Shown one piece after another: positions 1,402 through 63,439 of a DNA stretch of 64,000 nucleotides. The translations under genes were made by a program, and so were the position numbers. Each line of letters starts with the position of its first letter. The stretch's first letter is position 1. The notes beneath the pieces are model-generated. The model saw only the letters and a list, made by a program, of their open reading frames with translations, was not told where the DNA came from and did no database searches. Source of the stretch: Vulcanococcus sp. Clear-D1 (GTDB taxonomy: Bacteria > Cyanobacteriota > Cyanobacteriia > PCC-6307 > Cyanobiaceae); NCBI RefSeq assembly GCF_014654725.1, contig NZ_JACVZV010000015.1, positions 248,001 to 312,000 on the forward strand. The letters run 5' to 3'.

Positions 1402-4400
1402 TCACCCCTCCACAAGCTGTTCGGCTTCAAGCACCAGCTGGCGCAAGCGCTCCAGCTGGTTGTTTTGTGCTCGGCTCCAGAGGCCGCGATTGTGGGCTTC
1501 CAACAATCGCTCCGCCATGTCGCGCAGGGCCCAGGGATTTGCCGTTTTGAGGAAGGCGAGCACCTGCTCATCACCCAGCCATTGTTCTGTGATGGCGCCA
1601 TAGCTCCAGTCGGGCACGCGGCCGGTGCTGGCGTCGTAGGCGAACAGATAGTCGAGGCTGGCGGCCATCTCAAAGCCACCCTTGTAGCCGTGTTGCTGCA
1701 TCCCCTGGATCCAGCGGGGATTGAGGACGCGTGAGCGCAACACCTTGTCGAACTCGCGCTCCAGCCGATGCACACGGGGGCGTTGCTGGCGCGAGTGATC
1801 GCCGAACCAGAGCTGCGGTGCCCGGCCCGACACAGCCTCCACGGCAGCAGCCAGTCCGCCCTGGAACTGGTAGTAGTCGTCGGAATCAAACAGGTCGTGC
1901 TCGCGGTTGTCCTGGTTGTGCAACACCACCTGCACCCCGCGGAGTCGTTCTTCCAACCCCTCTCGATCGGCCTGCACGTCCAGCCGGCCGCCCGAGCCAT
2001 CGCTGCCGCCAAGGCCCTCGTAACGCCAACTGCTCCAGTTCAGGTAGGCGGCTGCCAGATCGGCCCGTTCCTCCCATTCGCCGCTGTCGATCAAGCCCTG
2101 CAGGCCTGCTCCGTAGGCGCCCGGCGCCGATCCGTACACCCGCCAGGCATGGCCATCGCGCCGCGCCGCTGCCGCCAGCGGATTGTTGGCATCGCATTCA
2201 TCCGCCGCCGCCACCATGGCCGTGGCGCGGTTCACCCAGGCCACCAGCTGCGGGAAGGCATCCCGAAATAACCCGGAAATGCGCAGGGTCACATCCACCC
2301 GCGGCCGCCCCAGCTCCCGCAGTGGGATCAGCTCCAGGTCCACAAGGCGCCGGCTGGGGCCATCCCAGATCGGGCGCACCCCCAACAGCGCCAGGGCCTG
2401 GGCGATGTCTTCCCCGCCATTGCGCATGGTGCTGGTGCCCCACACCGAGAGGGCGAGCTGTAGCAGTGGCTCGCCTTGCTCCATCCAGTGCTGCTCCAGC
2501 AGCAGTTCGGCACTGCGCCGGCCGAGATCCCAGGCCGCTTCCGTGGGCAGCGCCCGCAGATCCACGCTGTAAAAATTGCGGCCCGTGGGCAGCAGGTCCG
2601 GACGGCCGCGCGTCGGCGCACCCGACGGACCAGCTGCAATGCGCCCACCCGCTACAGCGGTGAGAAACGCCTGGCGTTCCGCGCTGCCGCACTGCAGCAG
2701 GTTGGGCACCAGGCCCGAGGCGAGCCGCTTCAGCACCGCGCCGGTGTGCTCCCCGGCGGCCGGTATGGCTTGACGGTTGTCGAGCAGAGCCTGGCAGTGT
2801 TGCTCCGCTACCGCCTCGATCCAGGCCACCGCATCTCCCACCAGGCGCGGCTGCGCTGCGCCCAGCTCCAGCAACCGCTGTTGATCAGCGCGACTGAGGG
2901 CTTGCTCCTCTGGTTCGCACCAGGGATCCAGTTCGAGATCCAGGTCGCGCGCCAGGGCCTGGGTCAGACCGAGCCCCTGTTGCTGCGGTGGCCTCGCCAG
3001 GCAATTGAGCAGTTCGGCCAGGGCTGAACCCTCCGGCAGGCTGCCGAAACGGTGCAGACCGGTGCGCACCTGGGCTTCCTTCAGTTCGCACAGATAGCCA
3101 TCGGCCGCATCGAGGGGATCGCCATCAGCGCTGCCGCTGAGCAGATCAGGCAGCTCAAGCTCGGCCAGACGCTCCAACACGCTCCGGCGAAGTTGAGCAC
3201 TGCGTGCACTGCCGAGCTGAACGGCTTCCCAGTATTCGTCGATCAGGGCCTCAAGATCCCGTAGGTCGCCATGCAGTCCGGCCCGGCCGAGCGGTGGCGT
3301 GAGGTGATCGAGGATCACAGCCTGGGCGCGCCGTTTGGCCTGCGAGCCCTCCCCCGGGTCATTCACGATGAAGGGATAAATGTGAGGCATGGGCCCAAGA
3401 GCCCACTCCGGGTAACAGTTGTTGGAGAGCCCCAGGCCCTTGCCCGGTAGCCATTCGAGGTTGCCGTGCTTGCCCACATGGCAGATCAACTGCACGCCAG
3501 CCTCCTGGCGCAGCCAGAGGTACTGAGCCAGGTAGTGGTGCGGTGGCGGCAGATCCGGGCAGTGGTAGCTGAGGCTCGGGTCGCGGTCGTAGCCGCGTTC
3601 CGGCTGGATCAGCAGCGTCACCGTCCCGAATCGCAGGGCCTGGATCGGAAACCCCTGCGCTTCCAGGAGTGGATCCTGCTGCGGGCTGCCCCAGCGCTGC
3701 TCCAGCTTTTGACGCCCGGCGGGCGGCAATTGGGCGTACCAGGCTTCGTAGCTGGCCAGAGGCAAATGGGCGAGGGCCGGACGGTGCAGGCTCTCGGGGT
3801 CGTTGCTGCGGCCGGCCAGCAGCCGTTGAATCAAGGCATCGCCATCGGCGGGCAGCTCCTGCGAGCCGAGCTCATAGCCGGCCTCTGCAAGCCAATGCAG
3901 CATGGCGGCAGCGCTGGCCGGCGTGTCGAGCCCCACGCCATTAGCCAAGCGCGCGTTGCGGGTGGGGTAATTGGCCAACACCAGAGCCAGGCGGCGTTCG
4001 GCTACAGGGGTAGTGCGCAGCTCGCACCAACGGCGTAGCAACTCAGCCACCCAGGCCAGCCGCTCGGGTTGGGGCTGGTAGTGCTGCAGCGCTGTGGACA
4101 GGCGCGGATCAGCCACGTCCACCTCTTTGAAGGCGCCCACCCGAGTGGTGATGCGGCCGTCGAGTTCCGGCAGGGCGATTTGGAGTGTGAGATCCAAGGG
4201 TGCCAATCCCACGGAGCTCTCGCGCCAGCTGGCTTCGCTCTGGGTGCTGCAGAGCAGCTGCAGCACGGGCACGGCTAATTGATCCCAAAGGGGTGCGCCC
4301 AGGCCCGCCTCACTCATCTGCACGGAAGCAAAGGAGGTGGTGCAGAGCACCGCCTGCACCTGCTCACGCTCCAACAGATCGGCGACGCCCTGCTGCACCG

Positions 4401-44318: not shown

Positions 44319-45422
44319 TCAGAACCACTCCAGAACCGCATCCTCTTTGCGGTTCACCCGCGCCTGGGGCGTGCGGCGCTCGAACTCCAGGCGAATCGAG
44401 CGCTCCTGTTCGCCATCGGCGGCCACGGCCTTGATCGGATACAGCTGCTCGCCATCGCGGAAGGGCACATGCACCCGGAAGGTGCCATCGGCTTCCAGCG
44501 GAATCTCTTGCTCACCGATCGAGAGGCGGGCGTTGGGTTCAGTGGCGCCGTAGACGATCAGCTCCGCATCAGCCACCAGCCAGAAGGAGCGCGGCCGCAC
44601 GATGCCGCTGCCTGATTCGCTGCGGCCGCTGGCCCAGAGGCCGGCGCCGGAATCGTTGAGGGCACCGCTGCGCGCGGAATTCTGGTCCCACCCATGGAGG
44701 ACTTCCGATCCCACGCGGCGGCTGCGCAGGCTGCCTGCGGTGGCCAGTTGATAGATCCGCTCGTGCTCCACCCCACCGCTCACGACGGGTTGAGCGGCGG
44801 CCATCACCGGTGCATCCAGGGAGAAGGGCACAAAGGCATCGGCCACCACGGATGCAGGCTCAAGCGCTGGCATCCGCGCCACCGAGGAGGTGGCCAAGGA
44901 GAACCAGCCGCCGCTCTTGGTGCGGTAGCCGAGTTCCACGCGGTAATCGCGGTCGCTCACGGGCATCGGCAGATGCCATTCCCGCGCGCCTTTGCTCACC
45001 ACCAGCTCCTGCAGGGTGTGGGGATGGGCAGCGCCCAAAGGCAAGCCGGTCACATCCGCTACCCGCAGTGCCAATTGCGTGGCACCGGCGGCCTTGGCGC
45101 GCTCCTGATCGCTGCTGCTGATCTCCCAGAACACATAGGCCCACTGGGGATCACGCGGCAGGAAGGTGATGTGGCTCGCGAGCTCTGGAACGGCTGCACG
45201 TGGCTGTTGCGCTGGAGCGCTGGCGTCCGTGGCCAGCTCTTGCTGCGCTGAGGGCGCGGCTTTGGGCAGGGCCTGGCTCACGGCATCGAGCAGAGCACTC
45301 TTGTCCATACGGCTGTAGCCACCCAAGCCGATGCGTTGAGCCAGATCACGCAGTTGAGCGATGGTCCAGCCGCCGAGGCTCGCGAGACCGCCGTTTCCCA
45401 TGTCCATACCGGAAGCCGCCAT
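44319..45422 (-). CDS. DUF4912 domain protein
   Basis: A 367-residue protein. The N-terminal part has a short SAP/Rho-N-like helix pair (WTIAQLRDLAQRIGLGGYSR, DKSALLDAVSQAL). The DUF4912 domain begins SHITFLPRDPQWAYVFWEIS and includes VSDRDYRVELGYRTKSGGWF. It ends in a basic part (LEFERRTPQARVNRKEDAV). DUF4912 has an immunoglobulin-like fold of unknown role, and the SAP-like part hints at nucleic acid contact. ATG 45422 is chosen; TTG/ATG codons upstream give a Trp/Gly leader without conservation. Confidence 0.8.
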   Translation of the reverse strand: MAASGMDMGNGGLASLGGWTIAQLRDLAQRIGLGGYSRMDKSALLDAVSQALPKAAPSAQQELATDASAPAQQPRAAVPELASHITFLPRDPQWAYVFWEISSSDQERAKAAGATQLALRVADVTGLPLGAAHPHTLQELVVSKGAREWHLPMPVSDRDYRVELGYRTKSGGWFSLATSSVARMPALEPASVVADAFVPFSLDAPVMAAAQPVVSGGVEHERIYQLATAGSLRSRRVGSEVLHGWDQNSARSGALNDSGAGLWASGRSESGSGIVRPRSFWLVADAELIVYGATEPNARLSIGEQEIPLEADGTFRVHVPFRDGEQLYPIKAVAADGEQERSIRLEFERRTPQARVNRKEDAVLEWF

Positions 45423-45657
45423 CTCAAACCCGCGCTGTGTGGATTGATCGTCGCCGGCCCAAAGCTCACATCCGAGCAAATGTCAGGGCATGGGGATCAC
45501 TGCAGCGACAGCGATCTGGCTGGCTTTCGCTGCTGACAGGCGGGACGCTTCTCGTCCGCTGCTGGGCCAGGCGCTTCCAAGAGAGTGGAGGTGCCTCGCA
45601 GGTCGCGCTGAGGCTCTGAACCAGCCGCCACCCCCAGCGAGGTCTTTGGGCAGCAGC

Positions 45658-45903
45658 TCAACGGACAGCCGCGTCCGGTTTACGGAACAGGCCATCAAGG
45701 TAGTGACGCACCACCGGTCTGTCCTGACAGCCCTGCTGAAACAGGAAGCCCGCCAGCGCTGATTGCATCAGCCGGTACTGATCCCATTGGGGGTGTTGTT
45801 CGATGAAACCCACCATCGAATCGAACAAATCTGCCGGGAATTGGTTTTCCACACTGACGTGCGGAGCCAACGCATCAGGAACCTCTGCCAACCAACACCT
45901 CAT
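45658..45903 (-). CDS. DUF2811 family protein, copy 1
   Basis: An 81-residue protein whose core HVSVENQFPADLFDSMVGFI, EQHPQWDQYRLMQSALAGFL and FQQGCQDRPVVRHYLDGLF matches DUF2811, a small cyanobacterial family of unknown function. The core differs from copy 2 (54545-54778) at four positions only, three of them conservative, while the DNA has many silent changes. So the copies are old but under protein-level selection. ATG 45903 is the start; TTG 45915 would add four residues. A conserved upstream block lies at about 46040-46200. Confidence 0.85.
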   Translation of the reverse strand: MRCWLAEVPDALAPHVSVENQFPADLFDSMVGFIEQHPQWDQYRLMQSALAGFLFQQGCQDRPVVRHYLDGLFRKPDAAVR

Positions 45904-45915
45904 CCGATCACCCAA

Positions 45916-46272
45916 CCATCAGCGCATAGAGGCGGCCACGGCGTCAAAGAATGGTCTTAAAGCGCGATCGCAGGTGTCTCGCATCAGGAGTAACTGCACC
46001 GCAATGGCTTTGGCGCCTTGATGCACAGATCGCCTCCTCCCCTCGGCGAGGTGCAGCGCGTCTGTCAAGAGGAGAACTCTTTTCCGGAGCGAATTCGGTT
46101 GAACCGCTTGACAGCTTGAGTCTGTCGCTGGACCCATGGGGAAAACCTGTGGAAAAGTGTGGCTTGCTTGGGGGGTGAGCCGTGCTTCAGGGGTACTGAT
46201 CAATCGCGGCCGCCCCTCAAGCAACCTTGATCAGCGGCATCAACGATCCAGCTACCCCCTGGACAGATGGGC
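45916..46272. promoter_or_regulatory. upstream region of DUF2811 copy 1, shared with copy 2
   Basis: No gene is seen. The part 46060-46200 is clearly related to 54945-55110 upstream of the second DUF2811 gene: both hold CTGTCAAG, TTTTCCGGA, TTGAGTCTGT and the element with a DnaA box. On the minus strand a TTGACAG hexamer lies in front of the gene at both places and may be a -35 box. The matched order suggests common control or one ancient duplicated unit. Confidence 0.6.
46136..46156. promoter_or_regulatory. 21-bp DnaA-box element, copy 1
   Basis: Contains TGTGGAAAA (46148-46156), the exact complement of the DnaA box TTTTCCACA, preceded 11 bases earlier by the near match TGGGGAAAA. The same 21 bases recur at 55023-55043 and 56588-56608. 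It lies about 230 bases upstream of DUF2811 copy 1. Confidence 0.7.
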
Positions 46273-46614
46273 TCAGCGCAGCGCGCGCAGCGGTGCGGTG
46301 GTGACGCAGTTCAACTGTTCATGCAGCGTCAGTCGGCCGGAATCACGCCACCAACGAAAACGCTGCAGCGCGCCGTTTTGCCACAGCCAGCCCTTCGCGT
46401 GCCCCTGCCGTGCATCCCAACGCCAATCCACCAGGCTGCTGCCGTCCAGGCCGCTCTGCTCCAGGCTCTCCATCAGTTCCCGTTGGATCTGATTCGGGCG
46501 AAGCCGATCGCAGCACTGCCCCTCCAATGCCGGCACGAGGGGCTGATCGAGCACCCAGGCACCGATCCGATCCAAAGCGGCCTTGAGGCGTGGAGCGGGA
46601 CGCTGCTGCTGCAT
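46273..46614 (-). CDS. conserved hypothetical protein
   Basis: A 113-residue protein (MQQQRPAPRLKAALDRIGAW) with many Trp and Arg residues (LVDWRWDARQGHAKGWLWQN, QRFRWWRDSGRLTLHEQL). It has no signal peptide or membrane segment. It is last in a probable three-gene set with the next two genes on the minus strand. The family is not recognised; the Trp-rich sheet-like end hints at nucleotide or protein binding but nothing specific. Confidence 0.6.
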   Translation of the reverse strand: MQQQRPAPRLKAALDRIGAWVLDQPLVPALEGQCCDRLRPNQIQRELMESLEQSGLDGSSLVDWRWDARQGHAKGWLWQNGALQRFRWWRDSGRLTLHEQLNCVTTAPLRALR

Positions 46615-46682
46615 GGCGCCTAGGCAACTACCCCACCTTGGATGCGCTGCTTGCCGAAAAGCAGTGTGTCAGTTGTGCAACG

Positions 46683-47081
46683 TCACAACTGCTGCTCATA
46701 CGCCCGCGCAGACCAGCTCGTGCGGGAGGTTGCGATCGGCTCCAAGGGGCCATCTCGATCGGAGCGGTACTGCAACACGCTCTCGGGCAGCAGTTGTGCG
46801 AGGCGTTGCAGGATCTGTTCATGCACCCTGCGGCTCAGGGGCGCACCCGTGCCCATGCCTTCCCGGCTGGTGACCAGAACCAGCAGTTCACCGCGGCCCC
46901 TCAGTTCCAACAGCACTTGCACGGGCACTGCAGCACTTCCAGGGAGCAGCGCCAAGGAGGCATTGCGCTGATCCAGCCAGGTGAAGGTTCCGCGATCTGG
47001 GCCTGGATCCAGCTGCTCGAGCACCAACCTCAGTTCTCGCTCCTCCGGCATGCCTGTGAGCAGTGCTTCCAGCCGCGCCAA
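46683..47081 (-). CDS. conserved hypothetical protein
   Basis: A 132-residue protein. RELRLVLEQLDPGPDRGTFT and VPVQVLLELRGRGELLVLVT look like alternating beta strands, followed by a helix (SRRVHEQILQRLAQLLPESV). TTG 47081 or ATG 47051 (MPEEREL) could be the start. It lies 37 bases behind the SepF-like gene and 68 before the next gene on the same strand, which points to co-transcription. Function unknown. Confidence 0.6.
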   Translation of the reverse strand: MARLEALLTGMPEERELRLVLEQLDPGPDRGTFTWLDQRNASLALLPGSAAVPVQVLLELRGRGELLVLVTSREGMGTGAPLSRRVHEQILQRLAQLLPESVLQYRSDRDGPLEPIATSRTSWSARAYEQQL

Positions 47082-47118
47082 TCTGTTGCCGTGAACGGCC
47101 TTTGATTGTGCATGGCCT

Positions 47119-47379
47119 TCAGCTGTGGCTGACGGTCACTCCAGCTGGTGCAAACAAAAAGGTCGCGTCAGAGATGCGCTCCACCTGTCCATCGAGCGCG
47201 CTGACCGCCCCGGCGATGAAATCGATGATGCGCTGCGCTTCCTCCGGTGCGGCGTCATCCAGTTGGAGCAGCACGCAATGGCGTTGGCGGATGGCCTCCA
47301 CAGCGGCCTGGGCATCACTGAGCCTGCGACTGCGCAGGATCGTGACCTGCGGGAACCAGATCCCGAAAGGGGAGTCCAT
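47119..47379 (-). CDS. short SepF-like protein
   Basis: An 86-residue protein that is almost only a SepF domain: VTILRSRRLSDAQAAVEAIR, QRHCVLLQLDDAAPEEAQRI, IDFIAGAVSALDGQVERISD and ATFLFAPAGVTVSHS. SepF polymerises and links FtsZ to the membrane. The N-terminal amphipathic membrane anchor and the long linker of normal cyanobacterial SepF (about 190 residues) are missing. ATG 47379 (MDSPFGIW) is chosen; upstream in-frame codons encode a poor Gln/Ala leader. It may be a paralogue with a changed role. Confidence 0.78.
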   Translation of the reverse strand: MDSPFGIWFPQVTILRSRRLSDAQAAVEAIRQRHCVLLQLDDAAPEEAQRIIDFIAGAVSALDGQVERISDATFLFAPAGVTVSHS

Positions 47380-47581
47380 GACGACATTCTCCTGACTCAC
47401 CTGGAACTGTTCTCGACCAGCACTCGCGTGGTCGCAAACCCTTGAGGCTGGTTGCGCAGCTGGTTGTTGCACGAGGCGCCCGTTGGGGCGCCGGATGAGG
47501 GTTATCTGCAGGCTGTGACGCCGTTGGTGTGAACCCGCGGCAGCACACGGGCTGCAGTGATTCCCGGATCAGCCTGGTGGC

Positions 47582-47728
47582 ATGGCTGACCCCATCGCTG
47601 CCCTTTCTGCACAGTTGGCCAGCCGTGCGTCTCTCGCCGCGGCATTGGCGATTGGAATGTCGGTGATCATGGCGATGGTGATCGGGGATGTGCTCGATCG
47701 CGAGAAGCGTCGCCATCACCAGGAGTGA
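47582..47728 (+). CDS. small single-span membrane protein
   Basis: From ATG 47582 a 48-residue protein (MADPIAALSAQLASRASLAA) has one hydrophobic segment (LAIGMSVIMAMVIGDVL) and a charged end (DREKRRHHQE). It is divergent from the SepF-like gene. Composition and codon use look coding; no family is recognised. Confidence 0.5.
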   Translation: MADPIAALSAQLASRASLAAALAIGMSVIMAMVIGDVLDREKRRHHQE

Positions 47729-47989
47729 GCGGATCCTCGCGGGTTACCCGTGTCTCCAGATCGCTGGCCTGGATGCCCTGGAGGCCGAGTCAGACGCGAT
47801 GAAACGGGATAAAGCAAAGCACTGAGTTCTTTGCCTATAGCTTCAAGTTGATCTGATCCCCAACGATTCCTTGATCAGAACTGTTGTGGTTCTTGTGTCA
47901 ACTGTTGATGTGGAAGGTTGGTGGCGATCACAACGGCACTATGGAGGGTTCGGGGATCTCTTGCGCCATCTCCATGGGAGCAATTGAAG

Positions 47990-49303
47990 TCAGTTGATCG
48001 GGCAACCACTGCGGATCGGCTTGCCGTTGAAGCGATCGTCCATCCAGGCGAGATAGAACGGCTCGGCTGCTGCTGGTGTTGAGAAGTGTGTGTTGTTTCC
48101 CGGTAACTCAATTCGGCTCATTACAGCGCCCTGTCGACAGGCAGCCTCAAAGTAAAGCTTGTGCATCACAGGTGGCACAACATCATCTTCATTTCCCCAA
48201 TAGATGACCACCGGCGCCATCGGTTTGAGGCCCGGTGCTTGGCTCTGGATTGCCTTGACCCAGGCCAGGCTATTGATGGGTGATGCCTTGAGCATCTGCT
48301 TGTAGGTGTTGCCGTAGCTGTAGCTGAAGGAGGCGCTCAGCTCATGGATGCACTTGCGCCTCATGATGTCGTTGATCTGGGCAGTGGCCTGGGGCGTCAG
48401 CAGATCCCCGAGATTCAGCCCCGGTTGGGCGGCGGCCAGACCCCAGTACATCATCACCAGGTGGGTGAAGTTGAAGATGTTGTTGGAGAACTGGTGATTG
48501 AGGGCTTGGATCAACGTCGCAGCATCAGCCTCGGTGGTGATGCTGCTGGGAATCTGAATCCCGGTGTCCTGCGGCGCCATGGCAATGAAGCCAAGGAGAT
48601 CAATGGGCGCTACGGCACCTTTGGCCTTGACATAGGCGCCCTGGCCAGCGGCGCCGATGGTGGCTCCTCCCCCTTGGCTCCATCCATACACGATCGCCTT
48701 TTCACCAGCCTGGGCTGGTTTGAAGTTGCGGGCAGCCCGCAGCGCGTTGATCACGTCACGGCCGTTGGAAACGTTCTGGGCGTATTGGTGATCACCAGGC
48801 CCCCCAAGCCCCTGGTAGTCGGTGGCGACAATCACGTAGCCCTTTTGGATCAGCGCTTCCATGGCAGGCAGGCCAAAGTCGTTGTAGCTGGTGCCACTCG
48901 GTAGCAGGATCTGGTTGAGGGGCTGGGCCGGCTGATCCATTTGGCTGGGTCCGCAGCGGCGCGCCGTGCCAGTGGTTCCGTGGGCCCACGCCACGAGGCG
49001 CCGACCCCCTACCGGAGCTGGAGCGTCGGGTACGGCGATCATGGCCGTCACGACCGTCGGGCGATCAGCGCCATCGCTGGAGACGTAGACGATGCGCCAG
49101 GCCTTGCTGCCCGGAACCGTGCTCACGGCAGGTTCGGAGGCGAGCACCTTTCCGAGTGGCTGGCCTTGAGGATTGAATTTGGAGGTGTTGGCGTAGAAGG
49201 GCGCCAGATAAACCTGGGGTTCGGCCTGCGACGGCATGACCGATCCACCGACCCCCACAACCAGTGACGCGAGTGCAGCGAACGTTCGTGCTTGGGCGTG
49301 CAT
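47990..49303 (-). CDS. secreted lipase-like alpha/beta hydrolase
   Basis: A 437-residue exported hydrolase. A signal peptide (TFAALASLVVGVGGSVMPSQ) is followed by an alpha/beta hydrolase fold: GRRLVAWAHGTTGTARRCG is the oxyanion strand region, IVYGWSQGGGATIGAAGQ the nucleophile elbow (GWSQG), VVIYWGNEDDVVPPVMHKLY holds the probable Asp and GNNTHFST the His. This order matches the secretory lipase (LIP) family. ATG 49303 is chosen over 49333 because the signal begins there. The substrate is unknown. Confidence 0.87.
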   Translation of the reverse strand: MHAQARTFAALASLVVGVGGSVMPSQAEPQVYLAPFYANTSKFNPQGQPLGKVLASEPAVSTVPGSKAWRIVYVSSDGADRPTVVTAMIAVPDAPAPVGGRRLVAWAHGTTGTARRCGPSQMDQPAQPLNQILLPSGTSYNDFGLPAMEALIQKGYVIVATDYQGLGGPGDHQYAQNVSNGRDVINALRAARNFKPAQAGEKAIVYGWSQGGGATIGAAGQGAYVKAKGAVAPIDLLGFIAMAPQDTGIQIPSSITTEADAATLIQALNHQFSNNIFNFTHLVMMYWGLAAAQPGLNLGDLLTPQATAQINDIMRRKCIHELSASFSYSYGNTYKQMLKASPINSLAWVKAIQSQAPGLKPMAPVVIYWGNEDDVVPPVMHKLYFEAACRQGAVMSRIELPGNNTHFSTPAAAEPFYLAWMDDRFNGKPIRSGCPIN

Positions 49304-49348
49304 GAAGCTGATTCCTTTTATGAGCAAGGGCATGGCTGGGAAAAGATT

Positions 49349-50647
49349 TTAGTACACCGCGGATGTCTCTAGGCGTCCGTCGGCAATCGCTTGCAGCAGT
49401 GCCTTGTGATCCTGCACTGCTAAATCCGCATGCTCGATGGCCTGCTCATAGATCGTTCTGGCAAACAACTTTGCATCATGGATGACAGCATGAATCTTTT
49501 TCCGGTCACCACTGCGGGCATGGGCTTTGGCCAAGGTCCAGGCGCAAAGCTTGCCGTAATCCTTTAACCCGTCCACATCAAGTTCGTTTACATCCACGGA
49601 ACCCTTCCAGTCACGGAAATGGCGCCAGTAGAGGTGCGTTCCTTCTGGAGTCGTGGTCCACCCCAGGAAAGCGTCGCTGGCGGTTTGCATCAGGCGTTGT
49701 CCTTCCACAACCCGTTGACCCTGGTGAGCTGGTACTTGGTCGACCCCATGGATATAGGGAGCGAGCACTGATGGTTCCGCCTGCTTGCTCTGGATCACCA
49801 GCACGTCGTCCGGCTGTTCACCAACAAACACACCAATGGCGCACCGCGTACCCACAGATCCCACGCCCACAGCCTTGAAGGCCGCATCGCTCATCCGGAA
49901 CTCGCTGAGCAACCGACGCATGTCCGGTCGAAGGCTGTCTAGATACTCGGCATACATCAAATCGATTCGATGTCGCCAGTCCATACCCGATAGGTTTTCA
50001 CTTGGCAGGAGCGAATACCGCCAGATCAAGGGTGGTTGATGCCGGAAAAGCAGCGTTCCGTTGTTGTCAACCTCGCAGAGCTTACGAACGGCCTGGCGGC
50101 TGTTGCGTTGCAGCGCCATTGCCGTCACTTGCTTGAGATGCGACCTCAAAGAGCCCTTCGCGCGCTCGTTAATCAAGTCCTGTAGCGGCAACCTGGAGAC
50201 CCACATCTTCAGAACGGGCATCGCCGCTAAATCAGCGATGGCCTCTGCATACGCCTGTACACCTCTACGGCACACCTTTTCTTGCTGCTTATCGCTCAAA
50301 CCAAGGCTCTGCCCAGCCAGTAGCAAGCTGGTGGCCAGTCGAATCACATCCCACTCAAATGGACCAGGATGGGTTTCATCGAAGTCATTGATATCAAACA
50401 GCAGTTGGCGTTCAGGAGAGCCATAGAACCCAAAGTTGAGCAAATGGGCGTCGCCACATAGCTGCACCATCAGCCCCGAGTGGGGCTTGCGTGCCAGATC
50501 AGCCGCCATGACGACCGCCGCGCCCCGGAAGAAGGCGAAGGCGTTTTCAGCCATGCGGCTGTGCCGCACAGGAACAAGCCACGCCAAGCGACCTGCCTCC
50601 TGTCGGCACAGCAGTTCGGTTGGGTCCTGTCGTGCCCCTTGATCCAC
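49349..50647 (-). CDS. DUF2252 family protein
   Basis: A 432-residue protein of the DUF2252 family, with FRGAAVVMAADLARKP, VQLCGDAHLLNFGFYGSPE, FDINDFDETHPGPFEWDV and VGSVGTRCAIGVFVG. The order resembles an atypical kinase or phosphotransferase fold, with the GDAHLxNFG part as a catalytic loop, but no reaction is known. GTG 50647 is the start. It lies 45 bases upstream of the lipase gene on the same strand. Confidence 0.87.
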   Translation of the reverse strand: MDQGARQDPTELLCRQEAGRLAWLVPVRHSRMAENAFAFFRGAAVVMAADLARKPHSGLMVQLCGDAHLLNFGFYGSPERQLLFDINDFDETHPGPFEWDVIRLATSLLLAGQSLGLSDKQQEKVCRRGVQAYAEAIADLAAMPVLKMWVSRLPLQDLINERAKGSLRSHLKQVTAMALQRNSRQAVRKLCEVDNNGTLLFRHQPPLIWRYSLLPSENLSGMDWRHRIDLMYAEYLDSLRPDMRRLLSEFRMSDAAFKAVGVGSVGTRCAIGVFVGEQPDDVLVIQSKQAEPSVLAPYIHGVDQVPAHQGQRVVEGQRLMQTASDAFLGWTTTPEGTHLYWRHFRDWKGSVDVNELDVDGLKDYGKLCAWTLAKAHARSGDRKKIHAVIHDAKLFARTIYEQAIEHADLAVQDHKALLQAIADGRLETSAVY

Positions 50648-50846
50648 GGAGCCGGCCTCTTGCTAGCCGAGTTCTAGGTGTGGATGGATGAGGTGCCAAC
50701 GCACCCGTGTGAGGACAACACCGATCGTCCTGCCATGGTCCTCGTGCCGGACGGCTTCAGGTGCGGGCACTCGACAACTGGCCGGTGGCGCTTCCATGGC
50801 CTTCAGCCAAACACCATCTGACTGCTGCACGAGCCAGGATCAACCG

Positions 50847-51053
50847 ATGACTGACCCTTCCCACGACCTCAGCCCTGGTGACTGGCGCCGTATCTGCGAT
50901 GCCCTTCGCTACCTCGGCCGTGATCTGCACCACCGCTCCTTTGCGGTAACGGCCGAGCGCCGAGAACTGCTCTGGGAGGAGATGGACCACTGCCTCGAGC
51001 TAGCGGATCGGCTGAGCCGTTCTCAGCTGGCCCATCCTGATCAGGCGGATTGA
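50847..51053 (+). CDS. small conserved hypothetical protein
   Basis: A 68-residue helical acidic protein (MTDPSHDLSPGDWRRICDAL) with RYLGRDLHHRSFAVTAERRE and MDHCLELADRLSRSQL. ATG 50847 is chosen; upstream the frame is open to 50688 but not protein-like. Its 3' end overlaps the tail of the broken VapC gene on the other strand. Function unknown. Confidence 0.65.
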   Translation: MTDPSHDLSPGDWRRICDALRYLGRDLHHRSFAVTAERRELLWEEMDHCLELADRLSRSQLAHPDQAD

Positions 51054-51250
51054 AGCCAGTTCTCCAGCGCCAGTCCTGGCACCCTGGAACATTCACGCGT
51101 GTTGTTGGTCACCAGCGTGCTCTGCTGACTGAGTGCATGGGCCCAATCATCGTGTCCACCGCTCCGATCGGCGTGCCCGTGCGTTCCAGCTCGGCCCTCA
51201 GGTGGCCTACAGCACAGAGCGGCGCTCAACGAAGGGAAGATCTCATGGCA
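51041..51250 (-). pseudogene. VapC-type PIN toxin remnant with frameshift
   Basis: The minus strand encodes the second half of a VapC toxin in two frames. VGHLRAELERTGTPIGAVDT lies in one frame; AHALSQQSTLVTNNTRECSR and VPGLALENWLQS lie in the next. These are the typical PIN core and C-terminal signature (TLVTNN). The frame break falls near 51138, within the conserved D..IAAHAL part. The N-terminal half is absent. It is a dead gene. Confidence 0.8.
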
Positions 51251-51289
51251 CAACCACGACCAGCTCCAGGGCTGCCCATATCGCTTCTA

Positions 51290-51323
51290 AACCCCCTGTG
51301 ATCTGCCATTGACCACAGGGGTT
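51290..51323. repeat. inverted repeat, possible bidirectional terminator
   Basis: CCCCTGTG (51293-51300) and CACAGGGG (51314-51321) form an 8-bp perfect stem, extended by AA/TT at the ends. It lies between the broken VapC gene and a small minus-strand gene. A T-run is missing, so terminator strength is doubtful. Confidence 0.4.
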
Positions 51324-51357
51324 CTGAGACTGGGATCAAGCAGGATCACGAGGCTGC

Positions 51358-51618
51358 TCAGCCCCTCGCGGCGGCATCCGCATCCAGGGCACGCTTCGTC
51401 ATGCCGTAGTGGAGCAGTGGATCGCGGTACTGGCGCGGCATGCGTTCGTGCAGCATCACCAGGCGATGCCAACAGAGCGTGCGTTGAATCTGGGGCAGCG
51501 TTTTCCCCTCTCGGATCAGGATCCTCAGCGCCTTGCAGTAAGCCGGATAACTGCCTTCGAGCTGCCCAAGGGTGAGCGATGGTTCATCCCCCCGGGCCGA
51601 GCCATTGCGTTCGGCCAT
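51358..51618 (-). CDS. small conserved hypothetical protein
   Basis: An 86-residue basic helical protein: SLTLGQLEGSYPAYCKALRI, REGKTLPQIQRTLCWHRLVM and LHERMPRQYRDPLLHY. The pattern of short helices looks like a cyanobacterial small protein. No signal or membrane segment is seen. ATG 51618 is the start. Function unknown. Confidence 0.6.
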   Translation of the reverse strand: MAERNGSARGDEPSLTLGQLEGSYPAYCKALRILIREGKTLPQIQRTLCWHRLVMLHERMPRQYRDPLLHYGMTKRALDADAAARG

Positions 51619-51920
51619 CCATGCCCCCAGGGGTGTTCCTTCAAACCTACGCCGGCATCGTCAGCGCCGTGGCTATGAAGGGGGTGGAGCGTGCCGTGAT
51701 GAGGACACGCTCTGGGGACATGCAGCTCCCAGGGGTTTTGAACATTCACCCTGGGGGTTTCCCCATATCCTCAACAGGGGTGCAGTAGGGTGGCAGAGAT
51801 TCAACGATCACTCTCCAGCAGGTTTCGACTCCAGGCGGCGGGTTCCCAAGATTTCTCCACCCGGCCAGCAACTTTCTTCAGGGCCTTCAACGAATCGGGT
51901 TCATACCTTTAACGCATTTC

Positions 51921-52202
51921 ATGACAATTTATGTAGGCAACCTCTCCTTCGATGCCGAAGTGGAGGACCTTCAGAGCCTGTTCGCCGAGTACGGCGCTGT
52001 ACGCAAATGCAGCCTGCCCCTCGATCGCGACACCGGCCGTAAGCGTGGCTTTGCCTTCGTCGAGATGGCCAACAACGCTGATGAGCAGAAAGCCATCGAC
52101 GATCTCCAGAACGTGGAGTGGATGGGCCGGATGATCCGGGTCAACCTGGCCGAACCCCGCACAGGCGGTGGTGGCGGTGGTGGTGGCGGAAACCGCTGGT
52201 GA
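51921..52202 (+). CDS. RNA-binding protein with one RRM domain
   Basis: A 93-residue cyanobacterial Rbp. RNP2 is IYVGNL at the N terminus and RNP1 is RGFAFVEM; both carry the aromatic residues that stack on RNA bases. A glycine run (GGGGGGGGGNRW) ends it. These proteins are often cold-regulated and bind thylakoid mRNAs. The upstream 5' region of over 100 bases has no gene and could hold a long leader. An intrinsic terminator follows. Confidence 0.95.
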   Translation: MTIYVGNLSFDAEVEDLQSLFAEYGAVRKCSLPLDRDTGRKRGFAFVEMANNADEQKAIDDLQNVEWMGRMIRVNLAEPRTGGGGGGGGGNRW

Positions 52203-52228
52203 TGCGTTGATCGAGCGATCACCCTTGA

Positions 52229-52253
52229 GCCGCCCATCCCGGGCGGCTTTTTT
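52229..52253 (+). terminator. intrinsic terminator of the RRM gene
   Basis: GCCGCCC, loop ATCCC, GGGCGGC and TTTTTT, 26 bases behind the stop. On the other strand it also lies behind the frp gene. Confidence 0.92.
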
Positions 52254-52273
52254 GTGGCGAGATCGGCGCTGAT

Positions 52274-52603
52274 TTAGAAGCGGGCCATCGCGGCAACCTT
52301 GGCGAGTTTCTCCGCATCAAGCCCATCGAGCTCCTGCAGGTGCAGCAGGTTCTCCTTCACCAAACTGGCAAAGACGAACAGGATCCCTTCCAACCGGAAG
52401 TCAAATCGACCTTCCATCGTGTGGCGCTCGATGCTGAGAAAGTCGTGCAGGGCCCAGATCGACTCCACAGTGCTCAGGGCTGAAGCCTGAGCTTGCACTG
52501 CAGCAGCCAGCTGAGCCACCGCGCGCTCGTAAGCCTTCTGGAAGGCGGAGCGGGCGATCGCCTGTTCGCTGTCGCTCCAGGTGTCCACAATCGCTTGATT
52601 CAT
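52274..52603 (-). CDS. frp: fluorescence recovery protein
   Basis: A 109-residue helical protein. AFQKAYERAVAQLAAAVQAQ, IWALHDFLSIERHTMEGRFD and FRLEGILFVFASLVKENLLH match FRP, the dimeric protein that binds the C-terminal domain of activated OCP and speeds return to the orange form, which removes it from phycobilisomes. It is the third gene of the ocp-crtW-frp set, 25 bases after crtW. Confidence 0.92.
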   Translation of the reverse strand: MNQAIVDTWSDSEQAIARSAFQKAYERAVAQLAAAVQAQASALSTVESIWALHDFLSIERHTMEGRFDFRLEGILFVFASLVKENLLHLQELDGLDAEKLAKVAAMARF

Positions 52604-52628
52604 TGGCGTGACACCGCTGTGCTCGACG

Positions 52629-53369
52629 CTACCGGAGCTGTTCCGGCACCGCGAGCGCGAGGCTCAGGGCCCGGGCAGAGGGCAATTGGTACCAGTTGAG
52701 GCCTGGGTTGTCGTGATGTTCGCGGTGATAGCCAAAGTGAAAACAGGCCAGCAGCGACAGCCAGGGCGGCAGATTCAGGCTGATCGGATGGGCGTTCAGC
52801 TCCGGCAAACGCTGACCGCGATGCGGCAGATAGGTGCCCACCAGGAACAGCTGCCATGAACTGAGCAGCAGTGGAAGGGTGACCACCAGCAGAACGCGCA
52901 CCGCTGCACCCCCTGGGCCAAGAGTTGTTCCGGTCATGGTCAGAAGCAGCAACACCCCCCACCCGCCGAGCAAGCGCAGCATCTGCCCTGCACTGAGATA
53001 GCGCAGCAGAAACTGCCAGTACCACTGCAACACTCCTCGGCGCTGGTCAGAGGGAAAGTCAGGATCGTCAGCTGTGCCTGGTTGGCCGTGATGGCGCTGA
53101 TGCTGCCGGTGGCAAGCCGCATACGGAACACCGGCATAGACCATCAGCGCCAAGGCGCCGATGGCGTTGTTGATCTTGATGCGATCAGGGCAGATCAACC
53201 CATGCATGGCGTCGTGGGCCACGATGAATAACCCTGTCTGCATCTGGGTGCGGAGCAGCACCATGGCCACCAGCAGCCAGACTGAAGAGTGGGTGATCGA
53301 GCTGCCGAGGGCCAGGGCCAGGGAGCAACCCCAGCCCAGGATCAAGGCACCGTTGAGCAGCAGGCTCAA
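52629..53369 (-). CDS. crtW: beta-carotene ketolase CrtW
   Basis: A 246-residue membrane di-iron oxygenase. The histidine boxes are FIVAHDAMHG, CHRQHQRHHG and FGYHREHHDNPGLNWYQLP. CrtW adds 4-keto groups to beta-carotene and gives echinenone or canthaxanthin, the carotenoid bound by OCP. The start is TTG 53369, whose bases overlap the ocp stop (TTGA). It is translationally coupled to ocp. Confidence 0.92.
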   Translation of the reverse strand: MSLLLNGALILGWGCSLALALGSSITHSSVWLLVAMVLLRTQMQTGLFIVAHDAMHGLICPDRIKINNAIGALALMVYAGVPYAACHRQHQRHHGQPGTADDPDFPSDQRRGVLQWYWQFLLRYLSAGQMLRLLGGWGVLLLLTMTGTTLGPGGAAVRVLLVVTLPLLLSSWQLFLVGTYLPHRGQRLPELNAHPISLNLPPWLSLLACFHFGYHREHHDNPGLNWYQLPSARALSLALAVPEQLR

Positions 53370-54319
53370 CGGGCGAACTTGAGCAGTTCAGCCGGGGAAG
53401 CCAGCAGATCAATCGCCACGAAGTAGATCTTGCCCTCTGGATTGAGCAAGAAGCGCCAGGCCACATTCATCCCGATCCCGGCACCGAACCACGGGGTCTG
53501 AACCTTGCCGGTCACCTTGATTTGGGTGAAACCGTCGTTGGTGGGTTCGGCGTAACCGCGTTCCGGCAGGAGCCTCAGGTTTTGGCAGTCTTCGCGGAAA
53601 AAGCGCAGGATGGCGTCGCTGCCCACGATCGGCTTTTGAAACGGCGGCTGGAGGGCGCCGTCCGGCAGAAACAGCTGGATCAGGTTCTCAAAGTCGTTGG
53701 CGTTGAGAAGATCCATGTAGTTGTTCACCGTGGGGTTGATCACGCCCTCGATAAACACTTTCTTGCGCTGCTCCTCAGGGGTGGGTGGTGTGACCGGTTC
53801 CATCACCCGCTGACCCTCTCCTTTGGCGGGATCAAACCCCATATCCACCACAAAGTTGCGCAGCAGCGTGATCTGCTGCCCCTGCTCCACGGCCTTCAAC
53901 GACGACAGCACGGCGGAAGCGTTGGCGGAGAGTTGATAGCCCTCGGGGATCGGCGCCACGCTGCCGGCAGCCATCCACTCACCGAGCTGGTACCAGAAAC
54001 CGAGTTTGATGTTCACTGACCAGGTGGCGTACACGCGGCTGATCGGTGTATCCGCGCTGTTGGCCAGATCGCACATCACCTGGCTCTGCTCCTCAAACGA
54101 CATCGCCTTGATCTCGTTGAGGGTGCGCTCAGCAAATTGCATGCGCGCGGCAGCTGGAGCGGCCACCGTGATCGTGCTTCCCATCTCGAGGTAGGCGTAC
54201 CAGATCAGAGCGAGCTGATCCTCGGCACTCAGCAGTTGAAAGCGAGCTGTGATCGCCGGCACGACATCAGCCGTGCGTGTTTCTGGAAAGATCTGGGCAG
54301 CCCTTTCAAGCGTGAACAT
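53366..54319 (-). CDS. ocp: orange carotenoid protein
   Basis: A 317-residue photoactive carotenoid protein. The N-terminal helical domain (residues about 1-165) reads LALIWYAYLEMGSTITVAAP and QVMCDLANSADTPISRVYAT. A linker follows, and the C-terminal NTF2-like domain begins INPTVNNYMDLLNANDFENL and has PQ-like text VAWRFLLNPEGKIYFVAIDL. In strong blue-green light it quenches phycobilisome excitation. It is first of ocp-crtW-frp on this strand. Confidence 0.96.
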   Translation of the reverse strand: MFTLERAAQIFPETRTADVVPAITARFQLLSAEDQLALIWYAYLEMGSTITVAAPAAARMQFAERTLNEIKAMSFEEQSQVMCDLANSADTPISRVYATWSVNIKLGFWYQLGEWMAAGSVAPIPEGYQLSANASAVLSSLKAVEQGQQITLLRNFVVDMGFDPAKGEGQRVMEPVTPPTPEEQRKKVFIEGVINPTVNNYMDLLNANDFENLIQLFLPDGALQPPFQKPIVGSDAILRFFREDCQNLRLLPERGYAEPTNDGFTQIKVTGKVQTPWFGAGIGMNVAWRFLLNPEGKIYFVAIDLLASPAELLKFAR

Positions 54320-54544
54320 GCAGGACGATCCAGATGTGAAGGATTATTTCAGACTCTAACCCTTCGCTCGCGCCACTGGGTTTTCTTAGGGTAATCCGGA
54401 GCAAATTCGCGGTGACCCTGCTGCTGGCATGCGATAACTCCAAAATCGCTGTTGATCACGAGCCGGCGCGCAACCGATCACGCATCCCGTCGAAATAGCG
54501 ATGGAGCGCTGCCCTCGAGGCAGCAACCAGGCACTGTTGCCTGC
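54320..54544 (-). promoter_or_regulatory. ocp upstream region
   Basis: About 225 bases without a gene. On the minus strand GAAATAATCC lies within 50 bases of the ocp start and may hold a -10-like TAAT part; no convincing -35 partner is seen. Confidence 0.35.
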
Positions 54545-54778
54545 TCAGCGCTGGGCTGCTTCAGGCTTACGAAAGAGCCCATCGAGGTAGTGGCGAACTA
54601 CCGGCTTGTCCTGGCATCCCTGCTGGAACAGAAACCCAGCCAGGGCGGATTGCATCAAGCGGTACTGGTCCCACTGCGGATGCTGCTCAATAAACCCAAC
54701 CATCGATTCGAACAGATCAGCCGGGAACTGGTTTTCCACACTCACGTGTTCCGGCATGTGGTCGGGAATCGCCTGCAT
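54545..54778 (-). CDS. DUF2811 family protein, copy 2
   Basis: A 77-residue DUF2811 protein (MQAIPDHMPEHVSVENQFPA) with FESMVGFIEQHPQWDQYRLM and QQGCQDKPVVRHYLDGLFRK. It is the close paralogue of copy 1 at 45658-45903. Start ATG 54778 is chosen; GTG 54802 would add eight residues. It lies downstream of a 400-base region that shares several blocks with that upstream of copy 1. Confidence 0.85.
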   Translation of the reverse strand: MQAIPDHMPEHVSVENQFPADLFESMVGFIEQHPQWDQYRLMQSALAGFLFQQGCQDKPVVRHYLDGLFRKPEAAQR

Positions 54779-54802
54779 CGCACCTCGCTCGCTCTGACCC
54801 AC

Positions 54803-55196
54803 CCATCAGCGCACGGAGAGCCACCCGCCGTCAAAACCGCTCGAATCAGACTGCTGGATCCTGTCGCAAACCTAGAAGCGTTGCGCCGCAGCGGCTTTGC
54901 CGCCTCACGCCAGGTGCTTCAGCCCACTGCTGGTGCCCGCTCTGACGGCTGTCAAGGGGAGAAGCGTTTTCCGGACGGATACAGCGAGCGCCTGACGCTC
55001 ACTTGAGTCTGTGCTGCGACCGATGGGGAAAACCTGTGGAAAAGCGTGCCGGGGCTGTGGGTAGGTTCGCTCTTCAGTGCTGCTGATCGGTCGCAGCGGC
55101 TGGGCAAGCAATCGCGATCTGAGGTGGATCCGGTGCTGACTGGTACTTGACCGATCACGCTTTGCCGCCGCTCAACCCAGCGCACCAACGGGCATC
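54803..55196. promoter_or_regulatory. upstream region of DUF2811 copy 2
   Basis: No gene is seen. Blocks shared with 46040-46200 are CTGTCAAG, GAGAAGCGTTTTCCGGA-like text, TTGAGTCTGT and the DnaA-box element. On the minus strand TTGACAG again precedes the gene. The order and spacing match copy 1. Confidence 0.6.
55023..55043. promoter_or_regulatory. 21-bp DnaA-box element, copy 2
   Basis: Identical over 21 bases to 46136-46156. TGTGGAAAA lies at 55035-55043 and the near match TGGGGAAAA 11 bases earlier. About 245 bases upstream of DUF2811 copy 2. Confidence 0.7.
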
Positions 55197-55229
55197 GTGA
55201 TTAGAAGGAGGTCACTGCGCTATCCCGTC

Positions 55230-56228
55230 GTGTCGATCACTGTCTGGCAGGCCCTGGAGGCTGGCGGTCGCCTCGAGCCCGCCACGCGCCCCATGCTCGA
55301 GCCCGCGGCCGATGAGCTTGTGCTGGAGGTGCTGCACTGCGGCCTCTGCCACAGCGATCTCTCCATGCTCGACAACCAGTGGGGTATGAGCAACTACCCC
55401 TTGGTTCCAGGCCATGAGGTGGTGGGCCGTGTGGTGCAGGTTGGAACGGGTGTGAACCCCGATCTGATCGGTCAGCTGCGCGGCCTCGGCTGGATCAGCG
55501 GCAGCTGCAGCCACTGCCCGCAGTGCCTGGGAGGGTCGGGCAACCTCTGCGCCTCGCTCGAGGCCACGATCGTGGGCCGACAGGGAGGCTTTTCCAGCCA
55601 TGTCACCGCCCGCCAGGACTGGGCCATCCCGTTGCCCGCTGGCATGGACCCTGCCGCTGCCGGCCCCCTGTTCTGCGGTGGCATCACGGTCTTTGCACCA
55701 CTGGTGGATGAGGCGGTGTCTCCCACCGCCCATGTGGCCGTGATCGGCATCGGCGGCCTTGGACACATGGCGCTTCAATTCGCCAGGGCCTGGGGCTGTG
55801 AGGTCACCGCACTCACCACCAATCTGTCGAAGGCGGAGGAGGCCCGTCGCTTTGGGGCGCACCATGTGGAAGCGCTCGAGCGGCTGGCTCACCTGCCGGG
55901 CCGGTTTGATCTGGTGATCAACACGGTGAACCACCCGCTCCAGTGGGGGGACGTGATGGCTTCACTGGCTCCCCGCGGCCGCCTGCATCAATTGGGCGCC
56001 GTTCTCGATCCAATCCAGGTGGGCGCCTTTGACTTGATCATGGGCCGCCGCTCGATCACCGGCAGCCCAACGTCCTCGCCCGCCAGCCTGCTGAAGATGG
56101 TGGACTTCTGCGTGCGCCACAACATTCGCCCCGAAGTGGAGCACCTGCCCATGGATCGCATCAATGACGCGATCGCCAGGCTGCGCCAAGGCGATGTGCG
56201 TTATCGGTTCGTTCTGGATCAAACCTGA
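55230..56228 (+). CDS. zinc-dependent alcohol dehydrogenase
   Basis: A medium-chain dehydrogenase (332 residues from GTG 55230). Catalytic zinc ligands lie in HCGLCHSDLSML and VPGHEVVG, the structural zinc cysteines in SGSCSHCPQCLGGSGNLC, and NAD(P)-binding in GIGGLGHMALQFARAWG. It resembles YahK/cinnamyl alcohol dehydrogenase-like enzymes that reduce aldehydes with NADPH. The frame is open from GTG 55197, with AGAAGGAGG at 55203-55211 but no start codon at the ideal distance; GTG 55230 is the best N terminus. Confidence 0.9.
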   Translation: MSITVWQALEAGGRLEPATRPMLEPAADELVLEVLHCGLCHSDLSMLDNQWGMSNYPLVPGHEVVGRVVQVGTGVNPDLIGQLRGLGWISGSCSHCPQCLGGSGNLCASLEATIVGRQGGFSSHVTARQDWAIPLPAGMDPAAAGPLFCGGITVFAPLVDEAVSPTAHVAVIGIGGLGHMALQFARAWGCEVTALTTNLSKAEEARRFGAHHVEALERLAHLPGRFDLVINTVNHPLQWGDVMASLAPRGRLHQLGAVLDPIQVGAFDLIMGRRSITGSPTSSPASLLKMVDFCVRHNIRPEVEHLPMDRINDAIARLRQGDVRYRFVLDQT

Positions 56229-56412
56229 GGCCTTCGCGCGGCCAAGGGCCAAGCCCGCAGCAGCGACCGCAAGGCGATCGCAGCAGGCCGCTTGGATAAG
56301 GCGGCGTTTTCCACACCATGCCATTCCGGCAGCTGATCGATCACACTGAACACCAGCTGAGACGTGCGACCGGGGCGTAGCTTCAGAGCAATCCTGGCGC
56401 ACTCAGCAGATC
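56225..56412 (-). pseudogene. possible degenerate DUF2811-like remnant
   Basis: A minus-strand frame reads QLVFSVIDQLPEWHGVENAA and LSKRPAAIALRSLLRAW before its stop. PEWHGVEN recalls PEHVSVEN at the start of the DUF2811 proteins, and the DNA there again contains TTTTCCACA (56307-56315), 293 bases from element copy 3. The rest of the family core is missing. A different short real gene is equally possible. Confidence 0.3.
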
Positions 56413-56639
56413 ACTGACCGCCGTTTCGATCTCAATCGGCTCGTTCCGCGACAGGTTGGCTTGCAGCGGGTTTGATCCTGCTGCCTCTTGAGTCAGCGCC
56501 GCTGCAGGCGCATCGGCTGCTGAACCCGAAGGCGTTGCGACATCCAGAGGGATCCTCCGTTGACAACATGAGACGGGCGCCGGACCCATGGGGAAAACCT
56601 GTGGAAAACGTCCCAGCGAGCGGCGCCGATGGCAGTGCC
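56229..56639. other. 410-base region with DnaA-box element, no clear gene
   Basis: Apart from the possible remnant at 56225-56412 and a short Glu/Leu-rich frame on the minus strand (NEPIEIETAVSDLLSAPGLL at its end), no supported gene is seen. Element copy 3 lies at its right end. Confidence 0.5.
56588..56608. promoter_or_regulatory. 21-bp DnaA-box element, copy 3
   Basis: Identical over 21 bases to 46136-46156 and 55023-55043. TGTGGAAAA lies at 56600-56608. A TTGACA hexamer lies 36 bases to the left. It is downstream of the small secreted protein gene that follows. Confidence 0.7.
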
Positions 56640-63234: not shown

Positions 63235-63264
63235 GTCTTGGCCTGGTCCGCGCCAGGGGTGAGG

Positions 63265-63405
63265 GAGCAACGACCGGCGGGCGTTCTGACTGCGAACGCG
63301 GCCTCAGCCCCGTTCGATCACAGCTGCGGGACAGCGCCGGATTCGCACCGGACTTTCCCCGTTTCCTCTTCGGGCTGATCCCCCGAAGAACCGACGCCAT
63401 CAATG
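63265..63405 (-). promoter_or_regulatory. cobalamin riboswitch
   Basis: On the minus strand the leader of hupE has the hallmark pieces in order: GGGAAAGTCCGGTGCGAATC (near 63339-63358), GGCGCTGTCCCGCAGCTGTGA (63318-63338, the B12-box core), and AGTCAGAACGCCCGCCGG (63274-63291). The AdoCbl aptamer ends about 30 bases before the hupE ATG, so binding of cobalamin would mask the ribosome site or stop transcription of hupE-cobW. Boundaries are approximate. Confidence 0.95.
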
Positions 63406-63439
63406 TAGTGGGTCTTCGCGGTTGGGTTGCTCTGGCCGA

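What the first reader, a model, noticed from the sequence alone, without database searches (positions are those of the whole stretch)
46136..56608. One 21-bp element with a perfect DnaA box occurs identically three times
The same 21 bases stand at 46136-46156, 55023-55043 and 56588-56608. Each has TGTGGAAAA (complement of the DnaA box TTTTCCACA) and, one helical turn (11 bp) before it, the near box TGGGGAAAA. A chance match of this length three times in 10 kb is not credible. The tandem layout suggests binding sites for DnaA: control of nearby genes by DnaA or a titration/initiation-control locus (like datA or DARS). I did not find such a pair elsewhere in the window, but I did not scan it exhaustively.
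Basis: partly seen in the sequence, partly recalled or inferred. Interest (0 to 1): 0.65.

Follow-up and report, generated by a model that had tools for sequence, protein, structure and literature searches.

The report
DnaA-box arrays guarding a cyanobacterial gene
The repeated 21-base element is a pair of binding sites for the replication-starting protein DnaA; across cyanobacteria such pairs stand mainly at the replication origin and in front of one small gene of unknown function (DUF2811), pointing to a DnaA-controlled circuit that looks undescribed.

Summary
The 21-mer occurs three times and nowhere else in the 2.96-Mb genome. Two copies lie upstream of DUF2811 (PF10929) genes, whose first domain codons hold the inverted box; the third is a relic.

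The sites are very probably DnaA boxes. Of 62 tandem pairs in 60 genomes, 24 lie near dnaN, 24 are linked to DUF2811 and 14 lie elsewhere. Where one lineage's oriC uses TTATCCACA, its DUF2811 boxes do too. The exact 21-mer also lies between dnaA and dnaN of a spirochaete MAG.

The DUF2811 link is class-wide: 117 of 135 DUF2811 genes have a same-strand box within 750 bp upstream (14.9 expected from shuffles), against 11 of 135 downstream. Boxes keep helical phase.

Best reading: DnaA-controlled expression of a small conserved gene, comparable with Bacillus sda; stand-alone copies may titrate DnaA. DnaA binding, regulation and the function of DUF2811 are untested. No held paper mentions DUF2811 or PF10929.

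The parts
46136..46156 (-). Tandem DnaA-box pair, copy 1: TTTTCCACA (46148-46156) and TTTTCCCCA (46137-46145), 11-bp register
45845..45853 (+). Inverted perfect DnaA box of copy 1, inside the 5' end of the DUF2811 gene (codons S-V-E-N), 303 bp from the pair
45658..45915 (-). DUF2811 (PF10929) gene, copy 1; ORF as listed, the likely start by alignment is the ATG at 45903
   Evidence: Pfam E 2.3e-25; start judged from the alignment
46063..46068 (-). Conserved TTGACA motif between the pair and the gene (promoter-like)
   Evidence: conserved in 14 of 14 aligned upstream regions; function inferred
55023..55043 (-). Tandem DnaA-box pair, copy 2
54732..54740 (+). Inverted perfect DnaA box of copy 2, inside the DUF2811 gene, 303 bp from the pair
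54545..54802 (-). DUF2811 gene, copy 2; likely start the ATG at 54778
   Evidence: Pfam E 7.3e-25
54950..54955 (-). Conserved TTGACA motif of copy 2
   Evidence: function inferred
56588..56608 (-). Tandem DnaA-box pair, copy 3
56307..56315 (+). Inverted perfect DnaA box of copy 3, 293 bp from the pair
56229..56345 (-). Relic of a DUF2811 gene start (an N-terminal stretch resembling the intact copies); approximate limits
   Evidence: no PF10929 match here; translation; read by eye, so weak

Best explanation
The 21-mer is a DnaA-binding tandem pair in the control region of a DUF2811 gene. Across cyanobacteria DUF2811 genes carry one to several same-strand DnaA boxes in helical phase a few hundred bp upstream. 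I propose that DnaA binds the array cooperatively, probably according to its level or nucleotide state, and sets transcription of DUF2811, so that a small protein is expressed in step with replication initiation or with light-dependent DnaA activity. In the own genus an inverted box in the first domain codons, about 29 helical turns from the pair, would let DnaA bridge the two ends and loop out the promoter region. Shown: sequence, position, orientation, phase, conservation, codon constraint, covariation with the oriC box in one lineage. Inferred: DnaA binding, looping, sign of regulation, what DUF2811 does.
For: (1) All 141 DUF2811 genes listed (70 genomes) were examined, 6 dropped for under 620 bp upstream: 117 of 135 have a same-strand box (at most 1 mismatch) within 750 bp upstream, 94 a perfect one (expected 14.9 and 0.8 from Markov shuffles); downstream 11 and 1. 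(2) The 28 DUF2811 genes of 24 other families: 24 have at least two same-strand boxes upstream, 1 downstream; 103 same-strand against 11 opposite and 7.2 expected. (3) Distances fall at 11, 21-22, 32-33, 43-44, 54, 65 bp; R 0.886 at 10.8 bp. (4) Of 62 tandem pairs in 60 genomes (backwards control 2), 24 lie 156-830 bp upstream of dnaN and 22 lie 252-475 bp upstream of DUF2811. (5) In genus g52 the DUF2811 boxes are TTATCCACA/TTATCCCCA (2 of 2 genomes) and the oriC of the one genome examined uses TTATCCACA. (6) The exact 21-mer lies between dnaA and dnaN in a Spirochaetaceae MAG. (7) In 17 genes whose SVEN codons hold the inverted box, those 4 codons are invariant, against 3 of 31 other amino-acid-invariant codons. 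(8) A conserved TTGACA promoter-like block follows the array. (9) The genome encodes DnaA.
Against: 18 of 135 DUF2811 genes lack any same-strand box; 11 of these are one divergent paralogue type, and one genome of another family (G067) has only a lone near box 723 bp upstream. Several paralogues have one box, not a pair. Ten copies of the bipartite layout have no DUF2811 at the inverted box, so the element cannot serve only that gene. The array lies 100-300 bp from the promoter-like block, far for a simple promoter site. A DUF2811 pseudogene (L194) kept the in-gene box but lost the pair. Of 23 VEN/IEN-type genes, 4 lack the in-gene box, two of them in the own genus. Sampled genomes are related, so counts are not independent events. 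No binding or expression data exist here.
Confidence: 0.72

Rival explanations
1. Titration or DnaA-state site: the arrays are datA/DARS/DnaA-box-cluster-like DNA sites that hold DnaA or change its nucleotide state; DUF2811 merely neighbours them.
For: Ten of 25 measured tandem-plus-inverted layouts lack DUF2811 coding sequence at the inverted box, with spacing 301-304 in 8 and 293 and 282 in the other two. Six, in genus g34, lie between convergent genes in 6 of 6 cases, although the spacers are only 61-94% alike. In the own genome 11 of 16 perfect boxes are here and none within the 7 kb read around dnaN. In 12 single-contig genomes none of 27 DUF2811 genes lies within 0.139 of the chromosome length from the origin marker.
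Against: The array stays with DUF2811, in the gene's orientation, across 24 families; a free titration site would not need that. Only 6 of the 23 g34 genomes searched match the exact bipartite pattern. DUF2811 positions scatter from 0.139 to 0.499. The g34 element could belong to an unseen RNA gene.
Confidence: 0.35
2. The sites bind another protein (for example an OmpR-type response regulator, which also uses direct repeats about 10-11 bp apart; recalled), and the likeness to DnaA boxes is chance.
For: Direct repeats in helical phase are not unique to DnaA. HLR1-like sites (RpaB; consensus read in PMC11633204 passages) lie upstream in 7 of 23 families, 0.1 expected.
Against: The sequence is the cyanobacterial DnaA box (PMC4674748 passages); it recurs at oriC; box covariation in g52; the exact 21-mer in a spirochaete dnaA-dnaN interval.
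Confidence: 0.06
3. Non-functional paralogous repeats: the copies are alike only because DUF2811 loci were duplicated.
For: Copies 1 and 2 are 69.5% identical over 581 alignment columns, so they are paralogous, and copy 3 is probably a relic.
Against: The 21 bases are identical while their flanks diverged; conservation across 24 families; helical phase.
Confidence: 0.03

Closest known systems
Bacillus subtilis sda (small gene whose promoter is bound by DnaA)
   Same: A small protein gene with DnaA boxes upstream, conserved in its clade (Sda: PMC8203912, passages only)
   Different: DUF2811 is unrelated in name and size class and its function is unknown; its array is a phased same-strand series far from the promoter-like block, sometimes with an in-gene inverted box; DnaA dependence not shown
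datA, DARS1/2 (E. coli) and B. subtilis DnaA-box clusters
   Same: Several DnaA boxes outside oriC, some in non-coding sequence between convergent genes
   Different: Tied to one gene family in 24 families; no test of IHF-type sites, ATP hydrolysis or nucleotide exchange was possible
Cyanobacterial oriC beside dnaN
   Same: Same box sequence and 11-bp pairs
   Different: oriC has boxes on both strands with same-strand offsets of about 0, 11, 65, 74; DUF2811 arrays are nearly all on one strand and lie away from dnaN

Membership tests
Cyanobacterial DnaA box | 9-mer TTTTCCACA | tested here: met
   consensus from PMC4674748 passages
Cyanobacterial DnaA box | Same motif and spacing as in the lineage's oriC, changing with it | tested here: met
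   g52: oriC of one genome; second genome, DUF2811 side only
Cyanobacterial DnaA box | Bound by DnaA | not testable with these tools
   needs EMSA, footprinting or ChIP
DnaA-regulated gene (Sda-like) | Conserved DnaA boxes upstream of the gene | tested here: met
   117 of 135 genes
DnaA-regulated gene (Sda-like) | Boxes at or near the promoter | tested here: inconclusive
   a TTGACA block is conserved downstream of the array; start sites unknown
DnaA-regulated gene (Sda-like) | Expression depends on DnaA | not testable with these tools
   no expression data
datA / DARS | Non-coding cluster acting on DnaA nucleotide state | not testable with these tools
   biochemical property
datA / DARS | Conserved chromosomal position | tested here: inconclusive
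   27 DUF2811 genes in 12 genomes lie at 0.139-0.499 of chromosome length from the origin marker: never near the origin, otherwise scattered
oriC | Adjacent to dnaN, boxes on both strands | tested here: not met
   own dnaN is on contig C18, the element on C15
Dispersed or mobile repeat | Many copies in unrelated contexts | tested here: not met
   3 copies of the 19-base core in the genome, all in 10.5 kb
Ribbon-helix-helix protein (for DUF2811) | Strand-helix-helix dimer fold | tested here: inconclusive
   two models with mean pLDDT 64 and 68, helices only; no significant structure match; no Pfam RHH match listed up to E 10

The most novel reading that the evidence does not exclude
DUF2811 is a cyanobacterial replication-control protein, a feedback partner or checkpoint effector of DnaA, and its control region is a dual element: DnaA-phased promoter switch and DnaA-holding site. 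This would be what DnaA still does in cyanobacteria that no longer need it to start replication.
Probability: 0.3. Interest if true: 0.87.

Novelty: new variant of a known kind. Interest (0 to 1): 0.72.

Why it matters
DnaA is dispensable for replication in some cyanobacteria, and authors suggested it acts there on transcription of unnamed genes (PMC7198777, passages); unknown factors are said to tune DnaA in S. elongatus (PMC6478999, passages). A class-wide, phased DnaA-box array in front of one small uncharacterised gene names a specific target and makes both questions directly testable in laboratory strains. The bipartite form, with a second box built into codons about 29 helical turns away, would be an unusual long-range DnaA arrangement.

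Tried and rejected
Chance or a simple repeat: rejected. An oriC in the window: rejected, dnaN and dnaA lie on other contigs. Other Rfam RNAs at the element: only a tRNA and a cobalamin riboswitch elsewhere in the window. DUF2811 as a ribbon-helix-helix protein: suggested by eye only; the models are weak and searches gave nothing significant, so not claimed; absence from those lists does not exclude it. DUF2811 in print: none found for 'DUF2811' or 'PF10929' in the held library; other paper searches showed no DnaA target gene for cyanobacteria in their listings. RpaB/HLR1 co-control: seen in 7 of 23 families only, so a side observation. A first count over 114 loci mixed in loci fetched because they had boxes; I therefore fetched the remaining DUF2811 genes and recounted without that bias, which lowered 104 of 114 to 117 of 135. 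The in-gene box was first counted 17 of 17 in genes matching a narrow pattern; the wider recount is 19 of 23. The 44-bp inverted-box figure still rests on the mixed set of 114. Spacing control: shifting the gap range to 289-319 gave 0 matches in 300 genomes, against 26 in 18 of 300. Not resolved: 7 of the 62 tandem pairs (G061 three, G066 one, G067 three).
Full report
What is there. The 21-mer is exact at the three places named, and its 19-base core is found nowhere else in the genome even with one mismatch. On the - strand it is a perfect cyanobacterial DnaA box and a near box 11 bp apart. Each copy has an inverted perfect box to its left, at 303, 303 and 293 bp. Copies 1 and 2 lie upstream of DUF2811 genes (PF10929, E 2.3e-25 and 7.3e-25). 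The inverted box lies in the codons for S-V-E-N at the start of that domain. Copy 3 keeps the layout but no PF10929 match; its remnant is judged by eye. The genome has six DUF2811 genes. A fourth locus, C24:229172-229484, has two perfect boxes 11 bp apart and the inverted box. Of 16 TTTTCCACA in the genome 11 lie at DUF2811 loci or the relic; the backwards pattern occurs 8 times.

Class-wide link. One search found 141 DUF2811 genes in 67 of 70 genomes. I examined all; 6 had under 620 bp upstream and were dropped. Of 135, 117 have a same-strand box with at most one mismatch within 750 bp upstream (shuffles 14.9), 94 a perfect box (0.8) and 76 at least two; downstream the figures are 11, 1 and 2. 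Of the 18 without, 11 are one divergent paralogue type, an internal contrast. In the 28 genes of 24 other families, 24 have at least two same-strand boxes; 103 are same-strand, 11 opposite, 7.2 expected. Distances cluster at 11, 21-22, 32-33, 43-44, 54 and 65 bp (R 0.886 at 10.8 bp over 138 related distances). In the mixed set of 114 loci an inverted box, where one follows within 120 bp, lies 43-46 bp after the last same-strand box in 22 of 30 cases.

Why DnaA. The published cyanobacterial box is TTTTCCACA at oriC beside dnaN (PMC4674748, passages). In 60 genomes all 62 tandem pairs were listed (backwards control 2). From 47 DUF2811 and 19 dnaN coordinates typed in, 24 lie 156-830 bp upstream of dnaN, 22 lie 252-475 bp upstream of DUF2811, 2 lie near a DUF2811 gene as relic-like copies 1.8-2.1 kb away, and 14 lie elsewhere. 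Of these 14, three have the oriC signature, one is a DUF2811 gene cut by a contig end and three are bipartite copies without DUF2811; seven are unexplained. In genus g52 the oriC of the genome examined has nine TTATCCACA and no TTTTCCACA, and its DUF2811 array is TTATCCACA/TTATCCCCA; a second g52 genome has the same DUF2811 array. The exact 21-mer was found in 5 stretches of the genome collection; in the Spirochaetaceae MAG it lies between dnaA and dnaN; the Clostridia one was not resolved.

The bipartite form. Tandem pair, gap, inverted box: 26 matches in 18 of 300 genomes of the family (11 of 25 own-genus genomes, 6 of 23 of genus g34, 1 of g30), and 0 with the next gap range. Of 25 measured, 22 have spacing 301-304 bp and the others 297, 293 and 282; these steps are near 10.5 bp, suggestive only. 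Fifteen have DUF2811 at the inverted box, ten do not. The six g34 cases lie between convergent genes (6 of 6), with spacers 61-94% identical. In 17 genes with the in-gene box the four SVEN codons are invariant, against 3 of 31 other amino-acid-invariant codons. Counting every VEN/IEN-type gene of the full set, 19 of 23 have the box; the four without use other codons for the same or similar residues, two of them in the own genus. So the protein does not force the box.

How it probably works. Array, then a conserved TTGACA block and gene start (11 aligned loci; 14 loci). DnaA on the phased boxes would act on the promoter from upstream, and in the own genus bridge to the in-gene box. A published proposal that DnaA domain I dimers make long-distance contacts fits (PMC5448010, passages). 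HLR1-like RpaB sites (consensus in PMC11633204, passages) occur in 7 of 23 families, 0.1 expected: perhaps a light input. All of this mechanism is inference.

Rivals and limits. Stand-alone copies, and the fact that none of 27 DUF2811 genes in 12 single-contig genomes lies within 0.139 of chromosome length from the origin marker, keep a titration or DARS-like role open; positions are otherwise scattered. Genomes are related, so counts are not independent. Downstream controls may be more coding and so G+C-richer; shuffles address composition. The function of DUF2811 is unknown: models were weak and searches empty.

What is known. Sda is the closest known kind (PMC8203912, passages). DnaA's non-origin targets in cyanobacteria are an open question (PMC7198777, passages; PMC6478999, passages). 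No paper held mentions DUF2811 or PF10929; subscription papers are not searched. PMC5295017 and PMC4447404 were seen as listings only.

Noticed in passing
52629-54319 (-): DUF2811 copy 2 lies directly upstream of an orange carotenoid protein gene (Carot_N, E 1e-63) and a CrtW-like ketolase (below NCBIfam cut-off): photoprotection next to a DnaA-box gene.
   Followed up: no
63259-63410 (-): Cobalamin riboswitch (Rfam RF00174, 53.7 bits).
   Followed up: no
44319-45479 (-): DUF4912 protein with a weak Rho_N match downstream of DUF2811 copy 1.
   Followed up: no
L164 1416-1514 (G061:C278:89415-89513): Compact cluster of six perfect DnaA boxes beside guaA, neither dnaN nor DUF2811.
   Followed up: partly
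L161 (own genome, dnaN at 2547-3665): The dnaN/oriC region of the own genome has only one-mismatch boxes and no perfect one in 7 kb; the perfect boxes are at DUF2811.
   Followed up: partly
L201 600-821: A high-light-inducible-type protein gene lies near the g34 stand-alone element, across a GNAT gene.
   Followed up: no
upstream of DUF2811 in L090, L031, L038: Perfect HLR1 (RpaB) consensus between the DnaA-box array and the gene.
   Followed up: partly
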